Shown here in pieces: positions 1 to 28,216 of a stretch of DNA of 64,000 bases. The stretch is from Actinomycetota bacterium (GTDB taxonomy: Bacteria > Actinomycetota > Actinomycetes > Mycobacteriales > Mycobacteriaceae): assembly GCA_018268465.1 (NCBI GenBank), contig JAFDWN010000010.1:1-64000 (forward strand), given 5' to 3'. The notes under the pieces were generated by a model. The model searched no databases. It was not told the DNA's origin and saw only the letters and a program-made list of their open reading frames with translations. Position 1 is the stretch's first letter. The number at the start of each line of letters is the position of its first letter. The position numbers and the translations under genes are program-made.

Positions 1-64
1 ACCCGAGTTCGAACTGATCGATCAACCGGGGCACCGGCGCGGGGGCCGAATCGATAATCGTCAT
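1..64 (-). CDS. mftC: Mycofactocin radical SAM maturase MftC, 5' end only
   Basis: Only the first 21 codons lie in the window. The start ATG (64-62) overlaps the mftB stop as ATGA. The visible N-terminus ends RLIDQFELG, which resembles MftC starts. MftC is a radical SAM enzyme that decarboxylates and cyclises the C-terminal Val-Tyr of MftA. The call rests on the short match and on position directly after mftA-mftB. The radical SAM cysteines are outside the window. Confidence 0.85.
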   Translation of the reverse strand, partial: MTIIDSAPAPVPRLIDQFELG

Positions 65-318
65 GCGCGCACCAACATCTTCGAATCGGCCAGCACGGCA
101 AGCGCTTTGGCGTAGGGCGCGGGATCGTCGACACCCGCGGCCGTGAGCGCCTGCCTGGCACTGGGTTGCTCGGACAAGGAACGGACCACCTCGACGACGG
201 TGACGTTCTTCAGAAAGGACAGCTTGCGGGTCCCGAAGTGGTACAGCAGCGCTCCGAACGGTTCGGGCCGCACCGCCACCTGCGGATGCAGGCGCCACCG
301 TGCGTCGAGGTCGAACAT
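61..318 (-). CDS. mftB: Mycofactocin peptide chaperone MftB
   Basis: An 85-residue protein that starts MFDLDARWRLHPQVAVRPEPF and has the GALLYHFGTRKLSFL core of MftB. MftB is a small RRE-type (PqqD-like) chaperone that binds the MftA precursor and presents it to MftC. The ATG at 318-316 follows the mftA stop by one base and its TGA overlaps the mftC start, so the three genes are tightly coupled. In-frame extension upstream to 687 would cross mftA and the promoter and is rejected. Confidence 0.93.
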   Translation of the reverse strand: MFDLDARWRLHPQVAVRPEPFGALLYHFGTRKLSFLKNVTVVEVVRSLSEQPSARQALTAAGVDDPAPYAKALAVLADSKMLVRA

Positions 319-319
319 G

Positions 320-418
320 TCAGTAGACCCCGCACATCCCGTCGATCGACACCTCTTCGACGAGGCTTTCGGTGACCAGGTCCTCGGTGGTCGCCTCGGG
401 TTCGTTGTGTTCAGGCAT
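320..418 (-). CDS. mftA: Mycofactocin precursor peptide MftA
   Basis: A 32-residue peptide starting MPEHNEPEA and ending in the diagnostic core IDGMCGVY. The terminal Val-Tyr becomes the mycofactocin redox cofactor after MftC/MftE/MftD processing. A strong Shine-Dalgarno, CAGGAGG, lies 5-6 bases before the ATG. It is the first gene of the minus-strand mft operon and is divergent from the methyltransferase at 581. It is easily missed because of its size. Mycofactocin accepts electrons from dehydrogenases with non-exchangeable NAD(P), such as the one at 17915. Confidence 0.96.
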   Translation of the reverse strand: MPEHNEPEATTEDLVTESLVEEVSIDGMCGVY

Positions 419-458
419 GACATCCTCCTGGTTGTGTGACGTGTCTCACCGAAGCTAT

Positions 459-471
459 GGCACTGAGTGCC
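459..471. promoter_or_regulatory. Palindrome in the mftA/mftM divergent promoter, candidate operator
   Basis: GGCACT-G-AGTGCC is a perfect 6-1-6 inverted repeat, 41 bases upstream of the mftA start and 110 bases upstream of the divergent methyltransferase start. mft operons are usually controlled by the TetR-family repressor MftR, whose gene is not in the window. Assigning this site to MftR is inference. A second weaker repeat, GGTGGG (488-493) and CCCACC (504-509), lies nearby. Confidence 0.5.
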
Positions 472-580
472 GAAAGGCAACTCGCCAGGTGGGCAGTTAC
501 CTACCCACCCGGACGGGCCGACGAATCGCACCCATTCGGGGTGCGCGCGGGAGACCTGCCGGGACATACAGTCGACGGGT

Positions 581-1480
581 ATGACACCCACGGCCGTGAC
601 CACGGTGGAGCCCGCAACCATCGACCCACTGGCACCCGCGCCGCGCGGCACCTGGTTCGGCCAAGGTGTGAGCGTGAGCCGGCGCATCGGACCGCATCAT
701 GCGCACACCGACACCAGCTGGGTGTGCACGCCCCGGTTCTGCGCGCGCCGGCGCGGTGGCCTGCTCAGCGTGGTGCACAATCTGACGCCCGACGAGCTGA
801 ACGACGAACTGACGACACTGCTGGTCGGAGAATTCGCCGACACCACCGTGCTGCGCGGCCGCAGCGACTTCGAGATGGTGTTCACCGGGGTGGTCCGTTC
901 GACCGTCGACGGCGGTCTGCCGGCGTGGCTGCGCTTCTACCGCAACTCGATGGCGATGCTCGAAGGTGGCAACACCGCATTCGCACCGATCCACGAACGC
1001 GCGGCCGGGCTGATCACCGGACCCACCCTCGTGGATCTGGGCTCCTGCTTCGGTTTCTTCCCGCTACGCGCCGCGGCGCACGGAATCGACGTCGTGGCAA
1101 CCGATCTCAGTGAACCGACGATGCGTCTGCTGGCCGCGGTGAGCGACCGCATGTGCCGTCCCCTGCGCACACTGAGCTGCGACGCAACCCGTGTTCCGCT
1201 GCCCGACGGGGTGGCCACCACGGTGACCGCACTACATCTGGTCGAACATCTCACACCCGCGCAGACCGACGCGGTGATCGAGGAGGCGCTGCGGCTGGCC
1301 CGGTGCCGGGTCGTCATCGCGGTGCCGTTCGAGGAGGAACCGACGGCGTGCTACGGCCACGTGCAGCGGTTCGACCTCGACACGCTGCGCGGGGTGGGTG
1401 AGCGGATCAAGCGCGCCCACCCGTCCGTGCGGGTCAGCGTGCAGGAATTCCACGGCGGCTGGCTGGTTCTCGACCGCTGA
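581..1480 (+). CDS. mftM: SAM-dependent methyltransferase, probable mycofactocin oligosaccharide methyltransferase MftM
   Basis: A 299-residue protein. The SAM-binding glycine-rich motif is GPTLVDLGSCFGFFPLRAAA (about residues 147-166), followed by an acidic DVVATDLSE strand and the ALHLVEHL post-motif of class I methyltransferases. MftM methylates the glucose chain attached to mycofactocin. The assignment rests on overall resemblance and on being divergent from mftA. The ATG at 581 was chosen because further in-frame upstream sequence would run through the promoter. If the mft context were absent it could only be called a class I methyltransferase. Confidence 0.75.
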   Translation: MTPTAVTTVEPATIDPLAPAPRGTWFGQGVSVSRRIGPHHAHTDTSWVCTPRFCARRRGGLLSVVHNLTPDELNDELTTLLVGEFADTTVLRGRSDFEMVFTGVVRSTVDGGLPAWLRFYRNSMAMLEGGNTAFAPIHERAAGLITGPTLVDLGSCFGFFPLRAAAHGIDVVATDLSEPTMRLLAAVSDRMCRPLRTLSCDATRVPLPDGVATTVTALHLVEHLTPAQTDAVIEEALRLARCRVVIAVPFEEEPTACYGHVQRFDLDTLRGVGERIKRAHPSVRVSVQEFHGGWLVLDR

Positions 1481-1487
1481 GGCCGAG

Positions 1488-2150
1488 TCAGCCGGGCGGC
1501 CGGGTGCCGGGCCGCTGCGGTGCGCGGTGCAGGAAGTAGAACGCGGGGCCGCCCCTGCCCAGCGTGGTCGATCCGGTCACCCTGCCGTCGGGAATCGCCT
1601 CGGCGTAGAACGGCAGCAACCGCTTCTCGCAGTTTCCGTACACCACAACGTCTTCCGCGTCGGCGCGGTGCAGCAGCCGGGCGACGAGTGCGTGCGCCGC
1701 GCCGGCGCCGTACCAGTCCGGGTCCACGCCGAGGTACATGGCGTACAGGTGGCGATCCCGCGGCTTCCCCCTCGCCACCGCCGCCTCGACCGCGAGCCCG
1801 GCGACAACCCGGCCACGCATCGCCGCAAGCAACGCGAGACTCTCCCTCAGCTTGCGCACCGGGTGGGGCCTGCCCCACGATCGGCTCCACAGGATGACCG
1901 CGACGATGCGGCCGTCGGCGGCGACGGCGACGTCCGCGCCGCCCTCGGGGAGATAGCGGTGTCGGATCATCGCCGCGAACATCCGCGGTTGCCGGACGGC
2001 GCGCTGCGCGTCCTCGGGGAACATGAAATCGCCCACGGCGTCCCCGGTTTGAAACGTCTGTCCCAGCAGCGCCGCCATCGCGGGGATCTCCGCTACGGCG
2101 GCGCCCCTGACCCGGAACGACGCCGCCGATTCCGGGGCCGTCGACGCCAT
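1488..2150 (-). CDS. GNAT-family N-acetyltransferase
   Basis: A 220-residue protein. The C-terminal half has the GNAT acetyl-CoA core: a beta-strand YAMYLGVDPDWYGAGAAHAL (about residues 137-156), close to the V-x-P-x-x-x-G-x-G/A motif, then a helix that would bind the pyrophosphate. It is the last gene of an operon with the alpha-oxoamine synthase (2-base gap) and the polyketide synthase. The likely role, acylating the amine made by its neighbours, is inferred from context only. The substrate is unknown. Confidence 0.75.
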   Translation of the reverse strand: MASTAPESAASFRVRGAAVAEIPAMAALLGQTFQTGDAVGDFMFPEDAQRAVRQPRMFAAMIRHRYLPEGGADVAVAADGRIVAVILWSRSWGRPHPVRKLRESLALLAAMRGRVVAGLAVEAAVARGKPRDRHLYAMYLGVDPDWYGAGAAHALVARLLHRADAEDVVVYGNCEKRLLPFYAEAIPDGRVTGSTTLGRGGPAFYFLHRAPQRPGTRPPG

Positions 2151-2152
2151 CC

Positions 2153-3457
2153 TCAGCGCTCCCCGGACCGGTACCGGCCGAGCAACTCGACCAGCCGGTC
2201 CAGTTGGCCGGTGGTGTGCTCGGACGAGAAGAACAGGCGCACCCGGTCCTGCCCGGGGTCGACGCCGGGCTGGGTGATCGGCGCGGCGTTGATTCCGTGC
2301 TGCAGCAGCCACAGTGACAGTTCGACGGTGGCCACCTGGTCGCCGATGATCAGCGGGACGATCGGCGTGCCCGCGCTGGTACCGGTGTTCCAGCCCTGGT
2401 CGCGCAGCGCCGTCAGCGCGCGGGCGGCGTTGGTGCGCAATCTGGCTGGGCGCTCAGGTTCGGCGCGCAGGACGTCGAAGGCCGCGATCGACGCCGCCGC
2501 CTGCGCCGGCGTCGAGGCGGTCGCGTAGAGACTCACCCCCGGTGCGAGCAGCCGGATGGCCCAGATGAGGTCGGCGTCACCCGCGAGGAATCCCCCGCAG
2601 CCGGCCAGCGTCTTGGACAGCGTCCCCATCCAGATGTCGACGGAATCCGGCGCCAGCCCGAAATGCTCCCGCACCCCCATGCCGCGCTCACCGAGCGTGC
2701 CGAACGAGTGTGCTTCGTCGACCATCACCAGAGCGTCGTATTCGCGTGCGACGGCGGCCAACTCGGGCAGGGCCGCGATGTCGCCATCCATGCTGTACAC
2801 GCCCTCGAGAACGACCAGGGCCCGCTCCCCCGAACCACGCGAATGACGCAACACCGATGCCAGCGACTCGGGGTCGTTGTGCCGGAACGTCAATCGCCTG
2901 CACTGTGCCCACCTGGTGCCCGAAACCACGCTCGAGTGGATCAACCCATCGCAGACCGCGATGTCGGCCGGTGTCAGCAGAAACGGGATCACGGCGGCAT
3001 TCGTCAAGTATCCGCTCGGGGTGACCACGGCGTCGTCCACCCCGTAGGCGCCCGCGAGCCTGCGCTCGAGTTCCCCGAACAGGGGAAGTTCCCCGGCCAC
3101 CGCCCTGCTGGCCGACGCAGACGTGCCGTAGAGGTCGATGGCATCCTTCGCGGCGGCCAGCACGCGCGGATGGTAGGCCAACCCGAGGTAGTTGAACGCC
3201 GCGAAGTTGAGCATCTCCCGGTCGAGGATCTCGATCGTGGGCCCGCTGACTCCGCGGTGGGGCAGGAAATACGGGCTGGGCAGCCCGCGCTCCGTCAGCG
3301 ACGCAAGGGCACGTCTGGCCGCTCTCCCCTGCGCGACGAGGGGGTGGTCCGTCAGCCCGGCGCGCCTGCGCACCGGCGAGGGGACCGCCGCGTTCGGCGC
3401 GCCGTATCGGCTGATCAGGTCGCGGGCCAGGGACCGCGGGTCGGATCCGTTGTTCAC
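2153..3457 (-). CDS. Alpha-oxoamine synthase (AONS/KBL/ALAS family, PLP-dependent)
   Basis: A 434-residue fold-type I PLP enzyme. It has DEAHSFGTLG, where Asp binds the PLP ring nitrogen and His stacks on it, and GTLSKTLAGCGGF with the Schiff-base lysine at residue 282. Family members condense an amino acid with an acyl thioester, losing CO2, to give an alpha-aminoketone (as in BioF, KBL, serine palmitoyltransferase). The GTG start overlaps the PKS stop as GTGA, so it is translationally coupled to the PKS. No bioA/D/B neighbours are present, so biotin synthesis is unlikely. The inferred job is release of the PKS chain onto an amino acid. Confidence 0.88.
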   Translation of the reverse strand: MNNGSDPRSLARDLISRYGAPNAAVPSPVRRRAGLTDHPLVAQGRAARRALASLTERGLPSPYFLPHRGVSGPTIEILDREMLNFAAFNYLGLAYHPRVLAAAKDAIDLYGTSASASRAVAGELPLFGELERRLAGAYGVDDAVVTPSGYLTNAAVIPFLLTPADIAVCDGLIHSSVVSGTRWAQCRRLTFRHNDPESLASVLRHSRGSGERALVVLEGVYSMDGDIAALPELAAVAREYDALVMVDEAHSFGTLGERGMGVREHFGLAPDSVDIWMGTLSKTLAGCGGFLAGDADLIWAIRLLAPGVSLYATASTPAQAAASIAAFDVLRAEPERPARLRTNAARALTALRDQGWNTGTSAGTPIVPLIIGDQVATVELSLWLLQHGINAAPITQPGVDPGQDRVRLFFSSEHTTGQLDRLVELLGRYRSGER

Positions 3458-6400
3458 AGGGCCGTCATCCCGCCAAGGGCCTGCTTGGCGATTGCCGCCA
3501 AACCGGGAAGCCGGCCGAAATCGACGGCCGACAGCCGGATGTCCAGCGTGGTGGCCACCCGCGAGGCGAGATCGACCGCCGACAACGAGTCGAGACCCAA
3601 CTCCGGCAACGGGGTGTGTGCGTCCAGACTGTCCGCAGGGATGCCCAGGACGGCCCCGACGTGTTCGGCGAGCACCAAGGTCAGCACCTCCAGACGCTGC
3701 TCGGCGGGCAGGGCCAGCAGCTCCGCCCGGAATCCCGGCGCGCCGTCACCGCCGGGCGAGGCGAACTCGCCGAATCGTGTCGAATTCCTCGACCCGGGAT
3801 GCGCGGACAAGAGGGTTTGCCAATCCAGCGCGGCCACAACGGGATTGGGTACCTGGTCGGCGAGGCCGGCGACCGCGTCCAACAGCCCCGGCAGCTCGGA
3901 GAGCTCAATCAGCCGGTGCCCGGTGGTGTCCATGTAGCGCCGAACCGCATCCGATGCGGTGAGCATGCCGCCGCCGCCGAGCGCGCCCAGGCACACCGCC
4001 AGCGCGGGTTTTCCGCGTGCATGGCGCAATTCGGCGATCGCGTTCAGCCCGGCGTTGGCGGCCGCGTAGGTGATCTGCAGCGCGATCCCGACCACCGCGG
4101 ACACCGACGAGAACATCACGAAGGCCTGCAGGTCGATTCCGGCGGCCTCGGTCGCGTTGTGCAGGTTCCACGCTCCGCGCAGTTTGGGATCGATCATCCG
4201 CCGCACCGTCTCCGGTGTGATCGCCTCGACGGCGGTGTCCTCGGCGACCCCGGCCGCGTGGAACACCCCGCTCAGCGGCGGCATCTCGGCGCCGGCCCTG
4301 TGGACCAGGTCGGTGACGGCGGCGGCGTCCCCGACATCGACGGCTTCGGATCGGACCTGCGCGCCGGCAGCGCGCCACGCGGCCAGCCGCTGAGCGGCCC
4401 GCCTGCTGCGGGCCCCACCCCTGCTGACGACGATCAGGTGGCGCGCGCCCTGATCCACCAGCCAGTCGCCGATCGTCAGGCCGACGGCGCCGAAACCACC
4501 GCTGATCAGGTAGGTGACGTCGGATCGGACCGAGAACCGCGGCGGGCCCGGCCGCACCGACGGGCTGCCGCCGAGTGCGACGACCACCCGGCCCCGCTGC
4601 GCACCCTGCGCGACGATGGCCAGCGCCTCGGCGAGCCGGTCGGCCGGATACGTCGTCGCGGGCAACGGGATGAACCTTCCGCTGTCGAGCCGTTCGACCA
4701 CCTCGTGGACGACACCGTCGGCAAACCCGCGGCGCAGCGCGAACATCCGGTCCATGTCGATGGCGAAGTACTGCAGGTCGCGGTTGAACGGCCCGAGTTC
4801 GATCGCTCCGTTGGCGAAGATGTCGGCCTTGCCGATGTCGACGATCCGGCCGAACTCGGCTGCCGCCCGCAGATTCTGGCGAAGCAGCTCGCCGGGAAGC
4901 GAGGTGTAGATGACGTCGGCACCCCGCCCGTCCGTCAGCCGCAGCACGTCGTCGACGAACCGGGTGCTCCGCGAGTTCACCGTGTGGTGGGCACCCGCGG
5001 CCACGGCGAACTCGCGACGCTCGGCGGTACTCGCGCTGCCGATCACCCGCGCACCCAGTCCGCGCGCGACCTGCACCGCCGCCAGGCCGGTGCCGCCCGC
5101 GGCGCCGTGCACCAGGATCGTCTCACCCGCGACCAGCCGGGCCGCGCACTCCAGCCCGTAGTATGCGGTGAGCAGCGGGACGAAGGAACCCGCGAACCCC
5201 GGCGCCACCTCATGCGTGAGCTTTTCGACAAAGCCGTCCGCGGCGTCGAGCGTGAGATAGCGGCGGAACATTCCCGGAACCGATACCAGCACCAAATCAC
5301 CCGGGGCGAAGCGAGTTCCGCCGCCGGTGCGGACCACGACGGCCACCCCTTCCATGCCGATCGATGCGCCGAAGAAGGTTCCGCGCAGATGCTCGGGAGT
5401 CAACAGGCCGAGCAGTTTCATCGCATCCTTGTAGTTGAGCCCGACCTCGTCGATGCGCAACTCGATCTGGCCGGGGCCCGGCGCGACCCGAGGTGCGGAC
5501 TGCAGTGTGACGTCGTCGAGCCGTCGCGCGGCTGGCGGCACCACGATGAACGATTCCTCCGGATCGCGCTGCGGCGCCGCGACCGAGTACGGCGCGAGTC
5601 GCTCGGCCAAGCCGCGATGCAGGAAGGGAACGTACAGTCCCCCGCGGCGCACCGCGATCTCGTCGGCCACCTGATCGTCGTCGTGGATCTCGTTGAGCAG
5701 GTGGGGATCCCAATCATCGACACGCCGGGCCGGCGCCAGGTCGATCTGCCGCCAGCGCACCCACAGCTGCGAGTTCTGCAGGGCCCGGCGCGCACCGGTC
5801 AGCGCCGCGTGCAACACGTGGGGTTGGTGGGTGTCTCCCGGCACCTGAAACGCCCCGCTGGTCAACACGACGGCGTCGACCTTCACGTCGGGATGGGCGG
5901 CGGAGACCGCGTCGAGCTGTCTGGACACTTCCGCCAGGTCGGCGATCAGCGTCACCTCGTCGCCCGTGCCGGCGACCACCACGACGGTGGCATCCGCACC
6001 GCCGAGGCCGCCGACGGCCTCCGCCAGCCGCGCCGGCCGCATCGGGGAGTGCTCGGCGGCGTCGCGGCGGCGTCCCCAACGCCGCAACGGACTCGCCTGT
6101 GGGGCATGGACGTTCAGGGTGGCGGTGGGCAGCCGGAATCCACTCGGTGGTTCCCCGAGACCGACCGTCAGCACCGCCCGCTCGCCACGGGACATGTCCG
6201 GTGTGGACATCGCGGTGAGCTCCCGCCACTGCATCTCGTAGAACAGCGCGCCCAGCCGGGTCAGCGGCGGCGGCGCGGGCGCGAAGCTGCCGAACCGGAC
6301 GTCGAGCAGTTCCAGCAGCGCCGAGCCGTCCCGGCCGGTCACCTGGATGTCCGCCGCGACGCCGTCGCCGCGGCGACGGACGGTCACCGTCGCCGACGGT

Positions 6401-9400
6401 CCCGCTGTCGGGCCGAACCACCGCACGGTTCCCGCGGCGACCGGCACCATCGGTCCCGCCGGCAGACCGGGAAGCGCTGCCACACACTGCAACACGGCGT
6501 CGAGGACCGCGGGGTGGACGATGTGACCCGCCCCGGGCAGCCCCGTGTCGATCGTCGCCACCACGATGTCGTCGGTCCCGTCGCCACCCACCCACGCCCG
6601 CGTCACCCGCCGGAACATCGGACCGTACTGTAGGCCACGTTGATTCAGCAGCGCGTAGAACTCGTCGCCGCCGAGCGGTTCCTCGCCGAACTCCGTGGGC
6701 GGCAGATACCCCGGCGCGTCGACCGGCGCGTCGACTATTCGGGCGGTGCTGTGCACGGTGCGCACGCCGGAGTCGTCGTGCGACGCGAAGCTCACCCGCA
6801 TGGTGGCCGGCTCCACGGTGATGGACACCCGCGGCACGGCGTGGTCGCTCACCACGAGCGGGGCCACGAAGCGTGCCGACTCGATGCTGAGGCTGGCATG
6901 CCTGGTGGTCTGGGCGGCCGCCGAGAGGAACGCGTCGAGGTAGGCGGCGGCGGGCAGCACGATCATCCCGTCGATGGCATGGTCGGCCAGCCACGGCAGC
7001 CGGGCGGCGGCCAGCTCGGTCGACCAGGCCATCGGATCGAGTTCGGAGCGGCCACCGAGCATCGGGTGTTCGGCGGGGTCGCCGCAGCGTTCCTGCACCG
7101 CCCGGGCGGGCTCGGTCCACAACATTCGGTGCTGCCAGGGATAGCGGGGCAGTTCGACGTGCGGCACGACCGCAGGCCGGCCGGGCGCGGTGTCGCCGAG
7201 ACACCCCGCCCGGTACAGGTCCCCGACCGCGCGGACGAGGTTGTCCCGCTCGCCTTCGCCGCGTCGCAGCGTCACGATCGCCTCGCCCGGTTCGGCCCGG
7301 CCCGCCAGGATGGCCCGGATGGAGCCGGACAGCACGGGATGCGGACCGACCTCCAGGAACACCCGGCGTCCGTCGTCGATGAGCAGCTCGACGGTGTCCC
7401 GGAACCGCACCGGCCTGCGGACGTTGGCGCACCAGTACCCGGCGTCCCACTCCGCGGCGGTCACCTGTGCGGCGGTGACCGTCGAATACAGCTTCCGCAC
7501 GGGTATTTTCGGTGTGATGCCGGCGAGCGCCGCTGCCAGGTCGCCGAGGATCGGATCCATCAGCGGACTGTGGTAGGGGACGGTCACCTGCAGGCGGCGT
7601 GCGAAGACACCGTCGGCCTCCAGGATCCGGTGCAGGCGCTCCAGCGCACCGGAGGGGCCGGCGATGGTCACGGAGTCGGGCCCGTTGATCGCCGCCACGG
7701 CCAGATCAATCTCACCGACATCCGAAATCCACTTGAGTGCTTGGGATTCGGACATTTCGGCGGCTAGCAACCCGCCCGCGCCGTCGATCCCCGCCTGCAG
7801 CCGTCCCCGGTGGTAGCTGACCATCAGCGCATCGTCGAGGTCGAGTGCGCCGCCGACGTAGGCGGCACTCACCTCGCCGACGCTGTGCCCGACGACGGCT
7901 GCGGGCTCGATACCCATCGCGGCGAGCTCCGCCACGAGCGCCACCTGCACCAGGAAATTGGCGGGCTGCGCGTACGCGGTGTGCGGAATACGGGACAGCT
8001 GCTCGGGTTTGGACAGTTCGTCGAGGATCGACCAGCCGGTGATACCGGTGAACACGGCGTCAACCTCATGGGCCTTGTCTGCGAAAGCGCCTCCGGCGGT
8101 GAGGAGTTCACGGCCCATCCCCCACCACTGCGGGCCCATACCGCTGAGGACGAAGACCGGGCCGGCGCCCGCGGCCACACTCACCCGGGTGATCGGCGCC
8201 GCCCCGGCGACCACGTCGTCGAGGTGCCTGGCCAGTTCGGCTTTGTCTGTGCAGGGCAGGACCGTGCGGAACTGGTGGTGGGCCCGCCTGCTCCAGGCGG
8301 CCGAGCAGAGGCCCTCGACCGAAGGAGCCGACGCCAGTGTGGTGCGCATCGCCGCTGCGACGTCGCGGACGGCCTGCTCGCTCGCCCCCGACACGGGGAA
8401 CAGGGCCACCGCGGGGGCGACCGCGGGCGTGGCCGGCACATCCGGGGCCTCGACCAGGATGGCGTGCGCATTCGTCCCGCCGTAGCCGAAGGCGTTGACC
8501 GCGGCGACGACGCGCCCGCCGCCGTCGCCGATCGGGGTCGCCTCGGCGACCACCTCGATGTTGAGGTCCGCGAACGGAATCGCCGGATTGGGGGCGACGA
8601 ACCGGGACTGCGGCGGGGCGATCCGGTGATGTACGGCCAGCGCGGCCTTGATCACGCCCGCCACACCCGCGGCGGCTTCCAGATGCCCGATCGCCGCCTT
8701 CACCGAACCCACCGGCAACGGCCGCGACCGCCCGTCGACCCGGCCGTACGCCGCACCGAGCGCGGTCAACTCGATCGGGTCGCCGACCGGAGTCCCCGTC
8801 CCGTGCGCCTCGACGTAGGTGATGTCGTGCGGCTCGAGCCCGGCCGACGCGCACACCGCGCGCGCGAGGTCGCGCTGGGCCACGCCATTGGGGACGGTGA
8901 TCCCGGGGGTGCGACCGTCCTGGTTGACCCCGGTGCCCGCGATCACCGCATAGATGCGGTCGCCGTCGCGCAGTGCGGCGCCGACCTTCTTGAGGACGAT
9001 CATGCCGGCACCCTCGCCGCGGCCGTACCCGTCGGCAGCGGCCTCGAACGGCTTGCAGCGGCCGTCGCGGGCAAGGAACCTGCCCTTGCACATGGTGACG
9101 AACACCTCGGGGTGGATCATCACGTTGACACCGCCGGCGATCGCCACGTCGCATTCACCACCGCTGACCGCCCTGGTGGCCTGGTGGATCGCCACCAGCG
9201 ACGACGAACACGCGGTGTCGATGGTCATACTCGGCCCGCGCAGGTCGAGCGCATGGGACACCCGGTTGGACACCATCGCCAGGGTCGCCCCGGTCGACGT
9301 GTGGCTGTTGATCGCGCGGCGCGCCGAGGGCATGTGCCGCCGGATCTGGGCGTCACTCATGAAGCCGCCGAGATAGACACCGACGTCGCGGCCGGCCACC

Positions 9401-9741
9401 CGGCCGGCGATACCTGCATCGTCGAGCGCCTCCGACGCCACCTCCAGGGCCCACCGCTGCTGCGGATCCATGACCTCGGCTTCGCGCGGGGAGATACCGA
9501 AGAACTCGGCGTCGAAATCCCACGGGGACATCACGACGAATCCACCGTGGCGCGTGTAGGACCGCCCGGGGGCGTCGGGGTCGGGGTCGTAGAAGAGGTC
9601 GGTGTTCCACCGTTCCGCCGGCATTTCGACGATGCCGTCACCGCGCCTGAGCATGAAATCCCAGTAGTCGGCGGGCGAGTACACGCCGCCGGGAAATCGG
9701 CACCCCATACCCACGATGGCAACACCCGCGCCCAGGTCCAT
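3454..9741 (-). CDS. Single-module highly reducing type I polyketide synthase (KS-AT-DH-ER-KR-ACP)
   Basis: A 2095-residue protein. KS has DTACSSS (nucleophile Cys178), EAHGTGT and KAAIGHLEAAAG. AT has GHSVG (Ser620). DH has HAIDGMIVLP (His921) and the partner HPAVLDAVLQ (Asp1081). ER has VHGAAGGTG near residue 1547. KR has SGGFGAVG near 1745 and a Ser/Tyr pair ending YAAANAG near 1890. ACP has LGLDSLSAVDL (Ser2052). All reducing domains look intact, so a fully reduced chain is predicted. There is no thioesterase, reductase or loading domain. ATG 9741 was chosen because a GAGAGG ribosome site lies nine bases upstream and the KS starts at once. AT specificity is not clear: the motif is VPYHSP. 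Confidence 0.95.
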   Translation of the reverse strand: MDLGAGVAIVGMGCRFPGGVYSPADYWDFMLRRGDGIVEMPAERWNTDLFYDPDPDAPGRSYTRHGGFVVMSPWDFDAEFFGISPREAEVMDPQQRWALEVASEALDDAGIAGRVAGRDVGVYLGGFMSDAQIRRHMPSARRAINSHTSTGATLAMVSNRVSHALDLRGPSMTIDTACSSSLVAIHQATRAVSGGECDVAIAGGVNVMIHPEVFVTMCKGRFLARDGRCKPFEAAADGYGRGEGAGMIVLKKVGAALRDGDRIYAVIAGTGVNQDGRTPGITVPNGVAQRDLARAVCASAGLEPHDITYVEAHGTGTPVGDPIELTALGAAYGRVDGRSRPLPVGSVKAAIGHLEAAAGVAGVIKAALAVHHRIAPPQSRFVAPNPAIPFADLNIEVVAEATPIGDGGGRVVAAVNAFGYGGTNAHAILVEAPDVPATPAVAPAVALFPVSGASEQAVRDVAAAMRTTLASAPSVEGLCSAAWSRRAHHQFRTVLPCTDKAELARHLDDVVAGAAPITRVSVAAGAGPVFVLSGMGPQWWGMGRELLTAGGAFADKAHEVDAVFTGITGWSILDELSKPEQLSRIPHTAYAQPANFLVQVALVAELAAMGIEPAAVVGHSVGEVSAAYVGGALDLDDALMVSYHRGRLQAGIDGAGGLLAAEMSESQALKWISDVGEIDLAVAAINGPDSVTIAGPSGALERLHRILEADGVFARRLQVTVPYHSPLMDPILGDLAAALAGITPKIPVRKLYSTVTAAQVTAAEWDAGYWCANVRRPVRFRDTVELLIDDGRRVFLEVGPHPVLSGSIRAILAGRAEPGEAIVTLRRGEGERDNLVRAVGDLYRAGCLGDTAPGRPAVVPHVELPRYPWQHRMLWTEPARAVQERCGDPAEHPMLGGRSELDPMAWSTELAAARLPWLADHAIDGMIVLPAAAYLDAFLSAAAQTTRHASLSIESARFVAPLVVSDHAVPRVSITVEPATMRVSFASHDDSGVRTVHSTARIVDAPVDAPGYLPPTEFGEEPLGGDEFYALLNQRGLQYGPMFRRVTRAWVGGDGTDDIVVATIDTGLPGAGHIVHPAVLDAVLQCVAALPGLPAGPMVPVAAGTVRWFGPTAGPSATVTVRRRGDGVAADIQVTGRDGSALLELLDVRFGSFAPAPPPLTRLGALFYEMQWRELTAMSTPDMSRGERAVLTVGLGEPPSGFRLPTATLNVHAPQASPLRRWGRRRDAAEHSPMRPARLAEAVGGLGGADATVVVVAGTGDEVTLIADLAEVSRQLDAVSAAHPDVKVDAVVLTSGAFQVPGDTHQPHVLHAALTGARRALQNSQLWVRWRQIDLAPARRVDDWDPHLLNEIHDDDQVADEIAVRRGGLYVPFLHRGLAERLAPYSVAAPQRDPEESFIVVPPAARRLDDVTLQSAPRVAPGPGQIELRIDEVGLNYKDAMKLLGLLTPEHLRGTFFGASIGMEGVAVVVRTGGGTRFAPGDLVLVSVPGMFRRYLTLDAADGFVEKLTHEVAPGFAGSFVPLLTAYYGLECAARLVAGETILVHGAAGGTGLAAVQVARGLGARVIGSASTAERREFAVAAGAHHTVNSRSTRFVDDVLRLTDGRGADVIYTSLPGELLRQNLRAAAEFGRIVDIGKADIFANGAIELGPFNRDLQYFAIDMDRMFALRRGFADGVVHEVVERLDSGRFIPLPATTYPADRLAEALAIVAQGAQRGRVVVALGGSPSVRPGPPRFSVRSDVTYLISGGFGAVGLTIGDWLVDQGARHLIVVSRGGARSRRAAQRLAAWRAAGAQVRSEAVDVGDAAAVTDLVHRAGAEMPPLSGVFHAAGVAEDTAVEAITPETVRRMIDPKLRGAWNLHNATEAAGIDLQAFVMFSSVSAVVGIALQITYAAANAGLNAIAELRHARGKPALAVCLGALGGGGMLTASDAVRRYMDTTGHRLIELSELPGLLDAVAGLADQVPNPVVAALDWQTLLSAHPGSRNSTRFGEFASPGGDGAPGFRAELLALPAEQRLEVLTLVLAEHVGAVLGIPADSLDAHTPLPELGLDSLSAVDLASRVATTLDIRLSAVDFGRLPGLAAIAKQALGGMTAL

Positions 9742-9982
9742 GCCCAGGATCCTCTCTGCACACCAGCGGTTCAGCCTCGCGACGCCGCGACGCGAGATGT
9801 CGCCGGCGACCGATTCTGCACACGTTGCAGGCTCAAGAAGCGTCCTCAGACTACGGTCACTTCGTCCTCTTGCCCCGACGAACGGCAAACTCGTCGGCGA
9901 TTGCCGCCGGATGCCGACCCGACCTCGCCACGATCGCGCCCGCGGCCGGAAATCGAGGGTGGCGGTACGCACCGGACACCCG
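9742..9982. other. Divergent intergenic region between the PKS operon and the SLC13 transporter
   Basis: 241 bases with no credible gene. It must hold the promoter of the PKS operon and that of the transporter. No clear operator palindrome or -10/-35 pair stood out by eye. Confidence 0.4.
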
Positions 9983-11665
9983 ATGGGTTCAGAATCTCAA
10001 CCCATGGCATGGATCGCGGCGGTCATCGTCATCGCCACGCTGGCGGTGATGACCGCGGGAACGGTGCCGGCAGTGCTGGCGCTCATCTGCGCGCTGGTGG
10101 TGGCCGGGCTCGTCGGTATCGCCACCCCCGCCGAGTTGTTCGCCGGCTTGAGCAACGGCGGTGTCATCACCATCGCGGCAATGCTGGTCATCGCCAAGGG
10201 GGTGCTGCATACCGGCGTGGTCTCGCGGGTGATGTACCGCCTGCTGTCCGGCGTCACGACGTCCACCCAAGCGCTGCGCCGGCTCATCCCGCCGGTCGGG
10301 TTCGTCTCCGCGCTGATCAACACCACGCCGATCGTGGCCATGCTGATTCCGGCGGCCAAGGAACTCGAACAGCAATCGGGCGTCCCGGCGCGCGGCGTGC
10401 TGCTGCCCATCGCCCACGCCACCACGCTGGCGGGGTCCGCCACGCTCATCGGGACCAGCTCCAACCTGCTCATCGCGGGTATCGCCGCACCGTCGGGGGT
10501 CGAGGTCACGATGTTCTCGTTCGTGCCGATCGCCGTCCCCGTCGCCCTGGTGGGGTGGGCGGTGCTGCTCATCACCGCCTCGAGGATGCTGCGCGGCCGG
10601 GCCCCTTCGTCCGACCGCGATCTCTCGTGGCGCGCGGAGATCCCGATCGCCCCGCACGCCAACGCCGTCGGCCGGACCGCCCCCGAACTCGGCATCCGGG
10701 CGACACCGGACTTCGAGCTGGTGGAGATCCAGCGGTGGGGCGAAGCCGTCGACGCCGACTCCACCCTGGAGGACGGTGACCTGATGATCTACCGAGCTAC
10801 CGAGGCCGGCGTGCGGATGCTGTGGAACAGCCCTCGGTTCGGCCAGTCACCCCAGGACCTCTACCTGGTGTCCATCGCGACCCACGAGCAGGCGACGGTG
10901 CGCGAATTGGAGGAGGACGACGATATCCAGGTCGTCGCGGCGCAGACCACCGACCTGCTGCGCGACACCCCCGCCCGGCCCGGGGAGATGTGCCTGGTGA
11001 CGGCCCGGTCGGTGGATGTACTCACCGACCATCCGCTGGTCGGGCTGTGGCAGAAGGTGGCGGGCAAGGCCCCGCAGACCGGAAAGACCTGGATCGCGCT
11101 GGCCATCCTGGTGGCGGTGGTGGTGGCCGGTTCGTTCGGCCTGGCGCCGATCGAGCTGATCGCCGTCACCGGGGCCACGCTGATGGTGGTCACCGGGGTG
11201 CTGACGCCGCGCTCGGCGGTGCGCGCACTGAACTGGAACATCCTGGCCATCATCGCCGGCTCGGTGGGGCTGGGCACGATCGTCGTGCAGAGCGGTCTGG
11301 GCGACCACATCTCCGATGCCATCCTCACGCTGTCCGGTGGCAGCACGGCGCTCGTGGTGCTGGTGATCGCGCTGGGCACCGCGTTGCTGACCAATGTCGT
11401 GACGAATTCCGCCGCGGCCGCCATCCTCACGCCGGTAGCGCTGACCGTCGCCGCGGGCACCGGTCTGGACCCCGTCCTGCTGCTGACACTGATCGGTACG
11501 TGTATCTCGTTCACGTTCCTCAACCCGTTCAGCCACCAGTCCAACCTGATGGTGATGAAACCGGGCGGGTATTCGTCGGCCACGTTCCTGCGCTTCGGTA
11601 TCCCGCTGACCCTGGTGTGCCTGGGGACCGCATTCTGTGTCGGCTGGGCGCTGCTGTCGCTGTAG
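9983..11665 (+). CDS. SLC13/DASS-type anion transporter with cytoplasmic RCK_C (TrkA-C) region
   Basis: A 560-residue integral membrane protein. Two hydrophobic halves carry the SLC13-like repeats INTTPIVAMLIP and TLIGTSSNLL, then LLTNVVTNSAAAAILTPVAL and the final CISFTFLNPFSHQSNL. About 170 soluble residues between the halves (around 215-345) include two RCK_C-like stretches. Such proteins move sulfate, dicarboxylates or similar anions, but the substrate cannot be read here. ATG 9983 and ATG 10004 are both in frame and neither has a strong ribosome site. It is divergent from the PKS operon, and any functional link is unproven. Confidence 0.85.
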   Translation: MGSESQPMAWIAAVIVIATLAVMTAGTVPAVLALICALVVAGLVGIATPAELFAGLSNGGVITIAAMLVIAKGVLHTGVVSRVMYRLLSGVTTSTQALRRLIPPVGFVSALINTTPIVAMLIPAAKELEQQSGVPARGVLLPIAHATTLAGSATLIGTSSNLLIAGIAAPSGVEVTMFSFVPIAVPVALVGWAVLLITASRMLRGRAPSSDRDLSWRAEIPIAPHANAVGRTAPELGIRATPDFELVEIQRWGEAVDADSTLEDGDLMIYRATEAGVRMLWNSPRFGQSPQDLYLVSIATHEQATVRELEEDDDIQVVAAQTTDLLRDTPARPGEMCLVTARSVDVLTDHPLVGLWQKVAGKAPQTGKTWIALAILVAVVVAGSFGLAPIELIAVTGATLMVVTGVLTPRSAVRALNWNILAIIAGSVGLGTIVVQSGLGDHISDAILTLSGGSTALVVLVIALGTALLTNVVTNSAAAAILTPVALTVAAGTGLDPVLLLTLIGTCISFTFLNPFSHQSNLMVMKPGGYSSATFLRFGIPLTLVCLGTAFCVGWALLSL

Positions 11666-11669
11666 GCGG

Positions 11670-11701
11670 TGACGCGCCGACTGGCCCCGATGGGCGCGTC
11701 A
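11670..11701. terminator. Hairpin between convergent transporter and mnoR genes
   Basis: TGACGCGCC (11670-11678) pairs with GGCGCGTCA (11693-11701) across a 14-base loop, between the transporter stop and the response-regulator stop, which it partly covers. There is no strong T-run on either strand. Confidence 0.4.
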
Positions 11702-12361
11702 GATCAGGCCGCGTTTGCTGGCCGCGTACACCGCCTCGGCCCGTCGGCTGACCTCGAGTTTGCGCATGATGTTGCTGACGTGGAACTTGGCGGTGGTGGC
11801 CGAGATGTAGAGCTTCTCGCCGATCTTGTTGTTGGACAAGCCCGCCGCGAGCAACCTCAGCACCTCGATCTCGCGGTCGGTGAGCTGCTGGCGCGGTTCG
11901 GTACGGCCCGACAGCGTCCGGACCACCGCGGCCGCGCTGCGGGAGTCGAACGCGCTCTCCCCCGTCGACACCGCCCTGATCGCCCGCACCAGTTCGGTGG
12001 TGTCGACGTCCTTGACCACGTAGCCGCGGGCACCCGCGTGCACCGCTCGCACGACGATCTCATCGTCGAGGAACGTGGTGAGGACCAGCAACCCGAGTGC
12101 CGGATGACCGGCCGACAGCTTGGCGCACAGGGACAGACCTTCGAACTCCGAGCCCGCCGACAGTTTGAGGTCGAGCACCACCACGTCGGGACCGGTCGCC
12201 GCCACCACCGCTTCGGCCTCGGCTTCGGAGGATGCCTCGCCGACGACCACCAGATCCTGTTCCCGCTCGAGCACCGAACGCAGTCCCTGCCGCAGGATCG
12301 CGTGGTCGTCGACGAGCACCAGCCGGATCGACCGGGCCGGCCGGGACAGCGACGAATTCAT
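11699..12361 (-). CDS. mnoR: NarL/FixJ-family response regulator, MnoR-like
   Basis: A 220-residue protein. The N-terminal receiver has VLVDDHAILRQGL with the acidic pair, phospho-acceptor Asp in VVVLDLK (about residue 61), a conserved Thr in LVLTTF and the lysine in YVVKDVD. The C-terminal LuxR-type helix-turn-helix has LTDREIEVLRLLAAGLSNNK and ISATTAKFHVSNIMRKL. Its ATG overlaps the kinase stop as ATGA. In M. smegmatis the MnoS/MnoR pair controls the methanol dehydrogenase locus, and the same gene set is present here, which supports the name. Confidence 0.85.
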   Translation of the reverse strand: MNSSLSRPARSIRLVLVDDHAILRQGLRSVLEREQDLVVVGEASSEAEAEAVVAATGPDVVVLDLKLSAGSEFEGLSLCAKLSAGHPALGLLVLTTFLDDEIVVRAVHAGARGYVVKDVDTTELVRAIRAVSTGESAFDSRSAAAVVRTLSGRTEPRQQLTDREIEVLRLLAAGLSNNKIGEKLYISATTAKFHVSNIMRKLEVSRRAEAVYAASKRGLI

Positions 12362-13770
12362 GTCGACACACCTTCCGCAGACTCCGCGGACCCGCGGGGT
12401 ATCCGAGTGACCACCCGCACACCACCGATCCGCGACGGCAGCACCTCGAAGGTGCCCCCCATCTCCCGGGCGCGGGCGAGCATGTTGGCCAGACCGCGGT
12501 GATGACCGTCCATATCGGCGGCCTCGGCCAGCCGCAACATCATCCGCAGCTTCGCGGGTTCGCCGGTGCCGTCGTCGGAGATGGACAACGTCACCGCCGC
12601 GGGACGATAGGTCAGCCGCACGATCGCGCGGGAGGCGTTGCCGTGCACCGCGGTGTTGAACAACGCCTCACCGGCGATGCGCAGCAGCGCGTGCTCGACG
12701 TTGCCGGGCAGTTCGGCCGCGGCACCCTCCACCCGTAACGTGACCCGCAGGTCCTCGGGCATATGCACCGTGGCCAACTGCTCGAGCATCTCGGGCAGGC
12801 TGGACCGCTGCGCGTCGCCGGGGTGGTTGAGCGCGTAGATCGCCGAACGCAGCTGCTCCACCGCGGATCGGGTGAGGTTCTTGGCGGTATCCAGACGATC
12901 GACGAGTTCTGTTGCCGCCGAGAGTGATTCGACCTCACTACGGCACACCTCGATCTGCATGCCCGCCGACAGCACGGTCTGGGCGACGCTGTCGTGCAGC
13001 TCGCGGGCGATGCGGTGCCGTTCGGAGTCGAGCACCTGATGACGTTGCGCGGCGCCGAGTTCGCGCTGCGTGGCGATCAACTCGGTATTGCGGGCGGCGA
13101 GGTCGGCCGCGTGGCGGCTGGCCTCGGCATAGGCGTCCTCCGCGCGGGTCAGCGAGGCCTGGGACTTCTGGAACAGCGCGCAGTTCTGCAGGGCGACAGC
13201 CGTCTGGCTCGCCAGGATGCGCATCACCGCCTCGTCGGTGCCGTCGAGCGTGCGGACGCTGGGCGTCCATGCGGCGAACGCACCGATGACGCCGCCGTCC
13301 AGTTCGATCGGCACGTGTGCGTGATGGCTTTCGATCAGCGGGAGCCGGAACTGGGCGAGCTGACCCCGCAGGATGTCGTTGAGCCGGTTGAGAACGACGT
13401 CGGGCAGATACGGCCCGGGGTCGCGGGCGTCGGAGAGCCCCTCGAACGCGTATGCGACACCGTCGGCGTCGAGGATCAGGTGGCGGGGCCGCGCCTCGGG
13501 GAGCGCCCCGTCGGCCAGGGCGAGCAGCACCCACTCCGCCCCCAGATGGATCCGGGCGGCGTCCGCGACCGCCCGGACCAGGGGTGCGGGGCCGTGCACC
13601 GTCTGCACCAGCGCCCGCGAGATGGCGTCGAGGGCGGCCACCACCCGATTCAGGCGCTGCGCGGTGACGCGGAACTCGGGGTAGAACGAACTCTTCCCCG
13701 ACCGCACACCGGTGAGTCGGTCGAGATCGGGGGCGTTCGCTCGGGGACGGTGCGTCGGGAAGGTCGTCAC
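12358..13770 (-). CDS. mnoS: Cytoplasmic GAF-domain sensor histidine kinase, MnoS-like
   Basis: A 470-residue protein with no membrane segment or signal peptide. A GAF-like sensor spans about residues 35-210. A coiled-coil linker follows, then a HisKA_3 dimerisation box with ERHRIARELHDSVAQ (His is the phosphorylation site) and an HATPase with GLANMLARAREMGG. It pairs with the adjacent response regulator. The GTG at 13770 overlaps the alcohol dehydrogenase stop as GTGA. Longer in-frame starts would lie inside that gene. The lack of membrane segments suggests it senses an internal metabolite, which is inference. Confidence 0.85.
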   Translation of the reverse strand: MTTFPTHRPRANAPDLDRLTGVRSGKSSFYPEFRVTAQRLNRVVAALDAISRALVQTVHGPAPLVRAVADAARIHLGAEWVLLALADGALPEARPRHLILDADGVAYAFEGLSDARDPGPYLPDVVLNRLNDILRGQLAQFRLPLIESHHAHVPIELDGGVIGAFAAWTPSVRTLDGTDEAVMRILASQTAVALQNCALFQKSQASLTRAEDAYAEASRHAADLAARNTELIATQRELGAAQRHQVLDSERHRIARELHDSVAQTVLSAGMQIEVCRSEVESLSAATELVDRLDTAKNLTRSAVEQLRSAIYALNHPGDAQRSSLPEMLEQLATVHMPEDLRVTLRVEGAAAELPGNVEHALLRIAGEALFNTAVHGNASRAIVRLTYRPAAVTLSISDDGTGEPAKLRMMLRLAEAADMDGHHRGLANMLARAREMGGTFEVLPSRIGGVRVVTRIPRGSAESAEGVST

Positions 13771-15008: not shown

Positions 15009-15102
15009 TACCCCGCCTCGACTCCCGACTGTGACCCGGACAACATCTCGACAACAAGCCTACGGGCTCGGCAGTGCCGTTCCAACATGACGACGGGCAG
15101 CC

Positions 15103-15130
15103 CCCTACCTACCCGATCGGGCAGGTAGGG
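15103..15130. promoter_or_regulatory. 28-bp near-perfect palindrome upstream of the alcohol dehydrogenase
   Basis: Outer arms CCCTACCT (15103-15110) and AGGTAGGG (15123-15130) flank the perfect inner palindrome CCCGATCGGG (15112-15121). One A/C mismatch separates the two on each side. It lies 24 bases after the VWA stop and 95 bases before the dehydrogenase start. No T-run follows it on the minus strand, so an operator is as likely as a terminator. Confidence 0.5.
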
Positions 15131-15154
15131 CTCGCCGTACCGGCCGGCCGCGGA

Positions 15155-16687: not shown

Positions 16688-16708
16688 TGGTGGCTCCCCC
16701 TGGCGGCG

Positions 16709-17911: not shown

Positions 17912-17914
17912 CCT

Positions 17915-19207: not shown

Positions 19208-19304
19208 GGCGGAACAGTCCTTCCTGCGATGCAGCACTGGTGTCGCCCATCAACGTAGGCACGTCGCTGTGATCCAGGGAACACTCCGCGCATAAGACTC
19301 ATCG

Positions 19305-19317
19305 TTGGGCAGCCCAA
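19305..19317. promoter_or_regulatory. Inverted repeat upstream of mno, candidate regulator site
   Basis: TTGGGC-A-GCCCAA is a perfect 6-1-6 repeat about 98 bases upstream of the mno start, close to GGCAC-N9-GTGCC (about 19322-19340). The window shows no competing gene on this side of mno. MnoR binding is a guess from position. Confidence 0.35.
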
Positions 19318-19370
19318 TTCGGCACGACCAGACAGTGCCGGGCCTGTCCGCCCGGGCAGGACGACGGACG

Positions 19371-19883: not shown

Positions 19884-20055
19884 CGACCTCCACCTGACCA
19901 CGGGCCTGCGGGATGCGCGACCGCCGACGCCGAACTCAACACAATCGTTAGGACCTGGAGACATGCCCGCGACCCGAACCTGCGGGCGCGCATATCCGCG
20001 ACGCTGAAACCGGATCCCGCTCCTCGCCGCGGGTCCGGTCCCGCGGTCGACGGGT

Positions 20056-21198: not shown

Positions 21199-21199
21199 C

Positions 21200-22887: not shown

Positions 22888-22920
22888 CTGCTGTCCTCGC
22901 CGGAGATGGCACTGGGTCGG

Positions 22921-24094: not shown

Positions 24095-24121
24095 GTCCCC
24101 CCGCGACGTCCCCGCTACCCG

Positions 24122-28213: not shown

Positions 28214-28216
28214 CGC

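What the first reader, a model, noticed from the sequence alone, without database searches (positions are those of the whole stretch)
1488..9741. Complete reducing PKS module coupled to a free alpha-oxoamine synthase and a GNAT: likely undescribed aminoketone pathway
The sequence shows KS-AT-DH-ER-KR-ACP with all catalytic motifs but no thioesterase or reductase. The alpha-oxoamine synthase gene overlaps the PKS stop by four bases and a GNAT follows two bases later. Alpha-oxoamine synthases are known to off-load acyl chains onto amino acids. The inference is a reduced alkyl alpha-aminoketone, then N-acylated. No acyl-AMP ligase or transporter specific to lipids of the PDIM type is present, so it is not one of the well-known mycobacterial lipid loci I can name.
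Basis: partly seen in the sequence, partly recalled or inferred. Interest (0 to 1): 0.78.

Follow-up and report, generated by a model that had tools for sequence, protein, structure and literature searches.

The report
Mycobacterial polyketide-fed amino-lipid gene trio
A mycobacterium carries a three-gene operon that probably builds a long fatty chain, joins it to an amino acid and caps the nitrogen, giving a sphingolipid-like lipid; the two-enzyme core is already known from Pseudomonas, this version is not.

Summary
In detail: window 1488-9741 (-) holds a PKS (KS-AT-DH-ER-KR-ACP), an alpha-oxoamine synthase (AOS) and a GNAT in one operon, catalytic motifs present. The stand-alone AOS type occurs in 15 of 396 genomes of the genus, a PKS beside it each time, and in Nocardia; the two genes diverge together (r=0.978, 23 loci). 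The AOS is not BioF/KBL: it lies in a clade of PKS- or carrier-linked AOSs. A GNAT of this subfamily recurs in four other loci of the genus, one related genus and six Nocardia loci; 16 of 17 Mycobacteriaceae loci have an MMPL gene nearby, the window being the exception. The kind is not wholly new: Pseudomonas PfSgaAB (iterative PKS + AOS) makes sphinganines (PMC12134224). Here the PKS is of another branch, no ketone-reductase gene was found beside it, and the GNAT model best matches puromycin N-acetyltransferase. Best reading: a saturated long-chain acyl-ACP plus an amino acid (serine likeliest) gives a 2-amino-3-ketone that is N-acetylated and, in relatives, exported. The chemistry is inferred, not shown.

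The parts
3454..9741 (-). Mono-modular reducing type I PKS, KS-AT-DH-ER-KR-ACP; the ORF is open as far up as 9972
8443..9723 (-). KS domain (residues 84-510 of the ORF counted from 9972)
   Evidence: Pfam PF00109/PF02801; Cys/His/His motifs
7249..8157 (-). AT domain; GHSVGE and VPYH (aromatic third residue, nearer malonyl HAFH than methylmalonyl YASH; rule recalled)
   Evidence: Pfam PF00698
6277..7068 (-). DH domain, HxxxGxxxxP and DxxxQ
   Evidence: PF21089 and PF14765
4579..5511 (-). ER domain
   Evidence: PF08240/PF00107/PF13602; TIGR02824 match 1488-1798
3979..4515 (-). KR domain, catalytic Ser-Tyr-Asn; LDD motif altered to AED
   Evidence: PF08659
3487..3672 (-). ACP domain, GLDSL
   Evidence: PF00550
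2153..3457 (-). Stand-alone PLP alpha-oxoamine synthase, 434 aa; N-terminal stretch RSLARDLIS and linker (possible PKS docking element, inferred)
1488..2150 (-). GNAT N-acyltransferase, 220 aa, fold nearest to puromycin N-acetyltransferase

Best explanation
The operon makes a sphingolipid-like amino lipid. The PKS works iteratively: it extends an acyl starter (probably acyl-CoA from fatty acid synthesis) with malonyl-CoA and fully reduces each unit, so a long, saturated, probably unbranched chain sits on its ACP. The AOS docks on the PKS, forms an external aldimine with an amino acid (L-serine most likely, L-alanine or glycine possible), and releases the chain by decarboxylative Claisen condensation, giving a 2-amino-3-ketone such as a 3-ketosphinganine homologue. 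The GNAT then acetylates the primary amine beside the carbonyl, which stops self-condensation and may protect the cell. In most relatives an MMPL transporter probably exports the product; in this genome it must be encoded elsewhere or lost. Shown: gene order, motifs, co-divergence, family placement, predicted fold. Inferred: iteration, chain length, extender unit, amino acid, docking, N-acetylation, export.
For: Catalytic motifs present in PKS and AOS and no releasing domain listed. The AOS nests among AOSs paired with or fused to PKSs or other carriers. PKS and AOS diverge together (r=0.978 over 23 loci, 0 of 5000 permutations as high; species relatedness not removed). The AOS's best solved-structure sequence matches are serine palmitoyltransferases 8guh/3a2b, 232.6 bits. 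At the amino-acid-selecting site (ThAOS Val79) it has Ser117, as SPT and BioF do, not Val (KBL) or Thr (ALAS) (PMC11906848 passages). AT motif VPYH has an aromatic where methylmalonyl ATs have Ser (rule recalled). PfSgaAB is shown to make sphinganines, with Ser strongly preferred over Ala and Gly (PMC12134224). GNAT model: puromycin N-acetyltransferase first, E 1.8e-12, TM 0.76 by query, an enzyme for a primary amine next to a carbonyl (recalled). PKS-AOS-GNAT-MMPL run in that order in L021, L023, L179 and L180, with 4-base overlaps at all three junctions of L180 and two of L179.
Against: No SDR-type reductase gene match and no MMPL match beside the window trio, so the pathway may end differently or be partly decayed. 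The AOS sits in a branch separate from the Pseudomonas/Burkholderia one, with different active-site segments (SGYLTN against mostly SGHATN), so Ser use need not carry over. The PKS is of another branch than the proteobacterial paired PKSs. BioF also has Ser at the selecting site, so Ser117 does not separate Ser from Ala. In the GNAT the usual Gln/Arg of the acyl-CoA loop is Tyr. Eleven of 17 Mycobacteriaceae loci lack a clear GNAT of this kind (L022 has a weak one; L024 and L025 are short contigs), so the GNAT is not essential to PKS-AOS chemistry in general. The AT inference rests on one motif. The assembly has an estimated contamination of 5.86%.
Confidence: 0.58

Rival explanations
1. Same PKS-AOS chemistry, but the amino ketone is reduced by a reductase encoded elsewhere to a free sphinganine-like base; the GNAT is a self-protection enzyme (as Pac is for puromycin) that acetylates toxic sphinganine analogues rather than a biosynthetic step.
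For: Pac-like fold. A clear GNAT of this kind in only 6 of 17 Mycobacteriaceae loci. Some relatives carry a zinc alcohol dehydrogenase directly after the AOS (L162, L163), and one Nocardia group an SDR about 4 kb on. SgaC, an SDR, is the proposed reductase in Pseudomonas.
Against: No SDR match next to the window trio; the GNAT overlaps the AOS by 4 bases and the MMPL by 1-4 bases in L179/L180.
Confidence: 0.22
2. The AOS uses L-alanine or glycine, giving 1-deoxysphingoid or 1-amino-2-ketone lipids instead of a serine-derived 3-ketosphinganine.
For: Ser117 is shared with BioF (Ala-using) as well as SPT; highest NCBIfam score is BioF, 321 bits, below its cut-off of 426.
Against: The nearest solved sequences are SPTs; PfSgaB hardly uses Ala or Gly.
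Confidence: 0.25
3. The AOS is a BioF or KBL paralogue that lies beside the PKS by chance (biotin or threonine metabolism).
For: BioF is the top NCBIfam model.
Against: Below the curated cut-off; a second match was counted in the own genome (2 in G000; its place was not listed, presumably the true BioF); BioF, KBL and SPT reference rows lie outside a 60-row clade of 100% SH-aLRT (one KBL and one SPT row only); PKS and AOS diverge together.
Confidence: 0.02
4. The cluster is a decaying remnant: with the MMPL gene gone the product is no longer exported or made.
For: The window is the only one of 17 Mycobacteriaceae loci with no MMPL nearby; GNAT acyl-CoA loop residue altered.
Against: The three frames are open over 8.2 kb; motifs present; codon-position pattern shows constraint in all three genes; four MMPL genes 60-63% identical to that of G064 exist elsewhere in the genome.
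Confidence: 0.1

Closest known systems
PfSgaAB, Pseudomonas fluorescens MYb115 (PMC12134224, Nat Commun 2025)
   Same: Mono-modular type I PKS next to a stand-alone AOS; AOSs fall in one larger clade (using Pseudomonas homologues L045, L094, L103, not the MYb115 sequence itself). Domain order KS-AT-DH-ER-KR-ACP is the same in the Pseudomonas homologue scanned (L094).
   Different: PKS in another branch and shorter: about 2,140 aa against some 2,440-2,660, the two proteobacterial PKSs scanned (L043, L094) having about 350 more residues between DH and ER; no SDR (SgaC) or LTA-synthase-like match beside it; GNAT of another subfamily than those near proteobacterial pairs; MMPL in relatives.
Capsule-locus PKS+AOS pairs of rhizobia (rkpA/rkpG) and Burkholderia (wcbR and partner); AOS gene names recalled
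   Same: PKS followed by AOS, as in Sinorhizobium meliloti pSymB L043 and, with an LpxC-like gene between, Paraburkholderia L044.
   Different: Set among capsule or polysaccharide genes, with SDR, LpxC-like or LTA-like genes. That rkpA/wcbR are PKSs of polysaccharide clusters was read in PMC3908369 (parts 1-2 of 5); naming L043 an rkp-type locus is my inference.
Mycocerosic acid synthase (Mas) and Pks2
   Same: Same domain order and similar length; Mas is the best solved-structure match, 867 bits over 84-2149.
   Different: Pks2 model score 1034 against a cut-off of 2400; partner is an AOS, no FAAL or MMPL match nearby; AT motif nearer malonyl. Mas itself was not in my tree.
Fused KS-AT-AOS proteins with separate ACP and acyl-AMP ligase in other mycobacteria
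   Same: PKS-linked AOS, 41-47% identical to the window AOS.
   Different: AOS domain on the PKS chain; no DH/ER/KR found in the two scanned (L034, L038); acyl-AMP ligase beside it.
Fumonisin-type fungal PKS + AOS
   Same: Reducing iterative PKS chain released by an AOS.
   Different: Fungal; recalled and seen only in search listings, not compared here.
Puromycin N-acetyltransferase (Pac, PDB 7k09)
   Same: Closest fold to the GNAT.
   Different: 22% identity; substrate here unknown.

Membership tests
SgaAB-type PKS-derived sphingolipid cluster | Mono-modular type I PKS adjacent to a stand-alone AOS | tested here: met
SgaAB-type PKS-derived sphingolipid cluster | AOS in the SgaB lineage | tested here: inconclusive
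   Same 60-row clade (100%), but a separate 24-row mycobacterial/Nocardia branch (99%); SgaB of MYb115 itself not in hand
SgaAB-type PKS-derived sphingolipid cluster | PKS of the SgaA lineage and layout | tested here: not met
   Same domain order but separate clade (KS-AT tree, midpoint-rooted), with an own-genome PKS (L165) as nearest outside row at 100%; about 350 residues fewer between DH and ER. The two branches do join at 98%, so a common older PKS is not excluded. SgaA itself not in hand
SgaAB-type PKS-derived sphingolipid cluster | L-serine as AOS substrate | not testable with these tools
   Ser117 compatible with Ser or Ala
SgaAB-type PKS-derived sphingolipid cluster | KDS reductase (SDR) in the cluster | tested here: not met
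   Neighbours are MftM and a CitMHS transporter; no separate SDR match in window 1-20000
BioF (8-amino-7-oxononanoate synthase) | Score over curated cut-off; groups with BioF | tested here: not met
   321 of 426 bits; outside in tree
KBL (glycine C-acetyltransferase) | Groups with KBL; Val at selecting site | tested here: not met
   Outside in tree (one KBL row only); Ser117; 234 of 493 bits
Mas/Pks2 methyl-branched lipid synthases | Domain order KS-AT-DH-ER-KR-ACP | tested here: met
Mas/Pks2 methyl-branched lipid synthases | Equivalog score; locus with FAAL and MMPL | tested here: not met
   1034 of 2400 bits; no FAAL or MMPL match in window 1-20000
Mas/Pks2 methyl-branched lipid synthases | Pap acyltransferase in the locus | not tested
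   No Pap profile was run
GNAT superfamily | GNAT fold | tested here: met
   AlphaFold2 model pLDDT 86; 227 PDB matches at E<=0.001, Pac first
GNAT superfamily | N-acylates an amine made by the AOS | not testable with these tools
   No assay; inferred from operon and fold

The most novel reading that the evidence does not exclude
Some mycobacteria and nocardiae make and export an undescribed class of polyketide-derived, N-acetylated sphingoid ketones (a sphingolipid-like envelope or secreted lipid), through a PKS-AOS-GNAT-MMPL operon built on a PKS branch of their own rather than the SgaA/RkpA branch; N-acetylation by the GNAT takes the place of ketone reduction or ceramide-type capping.
Probability: 0.4. 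Interest if true: 0.78.

Novelty: new variant of a known kind. Interest (0 to 1): 0.57.

Why it matters
[quoted passage not shown] mycobacteria are marked by unusual envelope lipids made by PKSs and moved by MMPLs (recalled). An AOS-released, N-capped amino lipid with an MMPL partner would be a new envelope or signalling lipid class for the order, would extend PKS-derived sphingolipids beyond the Pseudomonas and Burkholderia examples on a different PKS branch, and is directly testable by AOS assay and lipidomics. It also offers an explanation for orphan 'BioF-like' genes beside PKSs in mycobacterial and Nocardia genomes.

Tried and rejected
BioF/KBL paralogue by chance: rejected by tree, scores and co-divergence. 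PDIM/Mas-type locus: rejected on scores and neighbours. Straight SgaAB orthologue: rejected on the PKS side. Homology of the GNAT with the GNATs near proteobacterial pairs (L044, L117, L045): only 6.8, 6.0 and -0.1 bits against the mycobacterial/Nocardia GNAT profile, so these look like other GNAT subfamilies. Insertion-site analysis through MftM: abandoned, since MftM matched in only 3 of 61 genomes, the own one included. Ceramide-synthase-like GNAT (PF13480): two matches in the genome, both on contig C71, unlinked.

Limits. Paper searches: 10 of 10 used; none of the listed titles or abstract starts concerned a mycobacterial PKS-AOS-GNAT, but I opened only PMC12134224, PMC3908369 and PMC11906848, and searches listed a part of the papers found. 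Supplements of PMC12134224 were not available to me; its list of 6,101 clusters may include mycobacteria or Nocardia. Both trees are quick searches with SH-aLRT only; several reference rows have long branches, 18 of 81 AOS rows were in no group, and the four BioF rows were not one side of a branch over all 81 rows. In the KS-AT tree one of 18 rows labelled as paired (L068_11282, a second PKS in a Nocardia locus) falls elsewhere, and the root is a midpoint. The blastp kept only the best segment per pair, so its stop after DH for proteobacterial PKSs is not proof that ER-KR-ACP cannot be aligned; Pfam finds those domains there too. The 23 loci were chosen by me: near-duplicates and loci with an incomplete PKS were left out, and so were some complete Nocardia ones (L067, L070, L071, L072, L079). 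The GNAT and MMPL profiles include seeds from loci they then find; for the GNAT, seeded from three mycobacterial sequences only, already found the six Nocardia ones at 182-199 bits; for the MMPL, Pfam confirmed five loci. The N-terminal AOS motif was written after I had seen alignment A1.
Full report
Observation. The PKS ORF runs 9972-3454 (-) with an ATG at 9741; its stop overlaps the GTG of the AOS (3457-2153) by four bases; the GNAT ATG is at 2150, two bases after the AOS stop, and the gene ends at 1488. Pfam gives KS, AT, DH, ER, KR, PP-binding in order and lists nothing that would release a chain. An alignment of 20 PKSs shows the catalytic motifs in place. The AOS keeps the residues invariant in its 11-sequence alignment, the PLP lysine among them. 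The GNAT just misses Pfam's cut-off, but its AlphaFold2 model (6-sequence alignment, mean pLDDT 86, pTM 0.83) matches GNATs, with four chains of puromycin N-acetyltransferase (7k09, 7k0a) first (best E 1.8e-12, TM 0.76 normalised by query, 22% identity) and Corynebacterium 2qec fifth; 2qec was also the only sequence match in the PDB at E<=0.1.

Surroundings. The trio stands between MftM (467-1480 +; NCBIfam 355.8 bits, cut-off 200), a mycofactocin gene near the contig start, and a divergent CitMHS/DASS-type transporter (about 9998-11665 +). Profiles for acyl-AMP ligase, MMPL, SDR, free AT and methyltransferase found no separate gene in window 1-20000; Pap was not searched. The genome (G000, 6.88 Mb, 72 contigs, completeness 99.87, contamination 5.86) belongs to the genus Mycobacterium by inference: a genome of the same genus group, G057, has a contig of the same length (133,877) and the same locus as Mycobacterium attenuatum MK41.

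Distribution. Of 396 genomes of the genus, 30 have an AOS match at E<=1e-85. Fifteen of them (16 places, window included) have the stand-alone type; the 15 places other than the window are 49-66% identical to it, and a PKS lies next to all 16. Sixteen genomes, one of them also among the fifteen, have a type 41-47% identical, which in 15 of 16 places lies in an open frame of 1392-1695 aa; the sixteenth starts at a contig end. Pfam on two of these shows KS-AT-AOS on one chain without reducing domains; L034 has a separate ACP and AMP-ligase. Of 298 genomes of the order, 11 reach E<=1e-75.

Gene partners. The own genome shows 22 MMPL stretches, which I count as 11 genes in 6.88 Mb, so a chance MMPL in 20 kb would be expected in about 3% of loci (my estimate). 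A GNAT of the window's subfamily is in the window, L021, L023, L179, L180 and L164 (6 of 17); L022 has a weak one (60 bits), and L024 and L025 are short contigs. In L021, L023, L179 and L180 the order is PKS-AOS-GNAT-MMPL; in L180 all three junctions overlap by four bases, in L179 two do and the third shares one base. Of 17 Nocardia loci six (L041, L065, L069, L070, L072, L074) have this GNAT just before the PKS; in four of the 17 (L073, L077, L078, L080) the PKS is cut or broken on that side. Other versions lack it: zinc alcohol dehydrogenase after the AOS and a flavin monooxygenase-like gene before the PKS (L162, L163), a leucine-carboxyl-methyltransferase-like gene after the MMPL (L028, L030, L031, L181), and in Nocardia vinacea L076 FG-GAP/UnbV, DUF1702 and SDR genes. 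No MMPL of the own genome lies beside the trio; four genes elsewhere are 60-63% identical to the L021 MMPL.

Kinship. In an 81-row tree the window AOS pairs with that of G064 (100%), inside a branch of 24 mycobacterial/Nocardia paired AOSs (99%), inside a 60-row clade (100%) that also holds 17 paired AOSs of Proteobacteria and one relative group, 13 of the fused actinobacterial type (some judged by open-frame length only), three from Planctomycetes (FAAL-ACP-AOS in the one scanned, L133) and three others; the BioF, KBL and Bacteroidetes SPT references are outside. In a 50-row, midpoint-rooted KS-AT tree 17 paired PKSs of mycobacteria and Nocardia form one clade (100%), joined first by another PKS of the own genome (L165, 100%) and then by the proteobacterial paired PKSs (98%). 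Blastp aligns the window PKS with L165 over its length (35.6%, 2139 columns); its best segment with proteobacterial PKSs ends after DH, where the two of those scanned have about 350 more residues before ER. PKS and AOS identity matrices over 23 chosen loci correlate at r=0.978, 0 of 5000 permutations as high; species relatedness is not removed from this figure. So the pair has diverged together, with an AOS akin to the proteobacterial ones and a PKS of its own branch; a common older PKS is not excluded.

Mechanism. Full reduction follows from the domains. The AT motif VPYH has an aromatic third residue as in malonyl ATs (HAFH), not the Ser of methylmalonyl ATs (YASH); the rule is recalled and the evidence moderate. 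Release by an AOS needs no further domain. At the position that sets amino-acid choice in ThAOS (Val79; PMC11906848, passages only) the window has Ser117, as SPT and BioF do, so Ser or Ala fit better than Gly. PfSgaB used Ser almost only, and MYb115 makes C24-C28 sphinganines (PMC12134224 sections 7 and 8). The AOSs of this branch carry an N-terminal motif of the form R-[D/E/A]-x-A-x-x-L-L: a search expression written after seeing alignment A1 found it in 15 of 18 actinobacterial rows and in none of 16 proteobacterial ones; the window has the variant RSLARDLI and was missed, as were L022 and L066. I read it as a docking element for the PKS; this is inference. The GNAT's nearest fold acts on a primary amine next to a carbonyl (recalled for Pac), which is what an alpha-aminoketone offers.

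Known or new. PKS-derived sphingolipids by PKS+AOS are established in Pseudomonas (PMC12134224), and capsule loci hold such pairs; the main text of that paper does not contain 'mycobacteri', its supplements were not seen, and the listings showed no paper on a mycobacterial trio. The window is therefore best called a new variant: another PKS branch, a GNAT instead of an adjacent reductase, an MMPL partner in relatives.

Confidence (judgement). PKS-AOS release of an amino ketone about 0.8; Ser as substrate about 0.55; GNAT acting on that amine about 0.65, with acetyl about 0.5; the explanation as stated, with Ser the likeliest but not the only amino acid, 0.58.

Noticed in passing
window 61-1480: Contig starts in a mycofactocin region: MftB (-) and MftM (+), both above NCBIfam cut-off; an MftM match at E<=1e-60 was found in only 3 of 61 genomes searched, the own one included.
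   Followed up: partly
window 13767-19237 (-): NDMA-dependent methanol dehydrogenase (TIGR04266 over cut-off) with MadB-like ATPase, MadC-like VWA and ErcA-like iron alcohol dehydrogenase genes (these three below cut-off): looks like mycofactocin-linked alcohol oxidation (link recalled).
   Followed up: partly
window 20056-29572 (-): Ergothioneine genes egtA, egtB, egtD, egtE (over cut-offs), then a MetN-like ABC ATPase (21859-22887, below cut-off) with an NlpA-type lipoprotein (22921-23883) and a second glutamate-cysteine ligase (20056-21198): possibly an ergothioneine transport system tied to the pathway.
   Followed up: partly
L032-L040 and G605, G630, G634, G636, G507, G645: Second PKS-AOS type in the genus: KS-AT-AOS on one chain (Pfam on L034 and L038), with an acyl-AMP ligase match beside it in nine of nine loci L032-L040 and an MMPL match in four of them (L032, L036, L039, L040). 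No paper looked up.
   Followed up: partly
L021:4786-5799 (-): Stand-alone acyltransferase (PF00698) gene behind PKS-AOS-GNAT-MMPL in G064, with no match in window 1-20000: possibly a trans-acting AT or chain-loading enzyme.
   Followed up: no
L076 (Nocardia vinacea) 11374-16606: FG-GAP/UnbV protein, a 468-aa protein without clear family, DUF1702 and SDR genes follow PKS-AOS; Nocardia loci L073, L075 and L077-L081 also have an SDR match about 4 kb beyond the AOS.
   Followed up: no
L133: Planctomycete FAAL-ACP-AOS on one chain: an AOS of the same clade fed by a fatty acyl-AMP ligase instead of a PKS.
   Followed up: no
L044, L117, L045: GNAT genes of apparently other subfamilies stand next to or near proteobacterial PKS-AOS pairs, so GNAT recruitment may have happened more than once.
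   Followed up: partly
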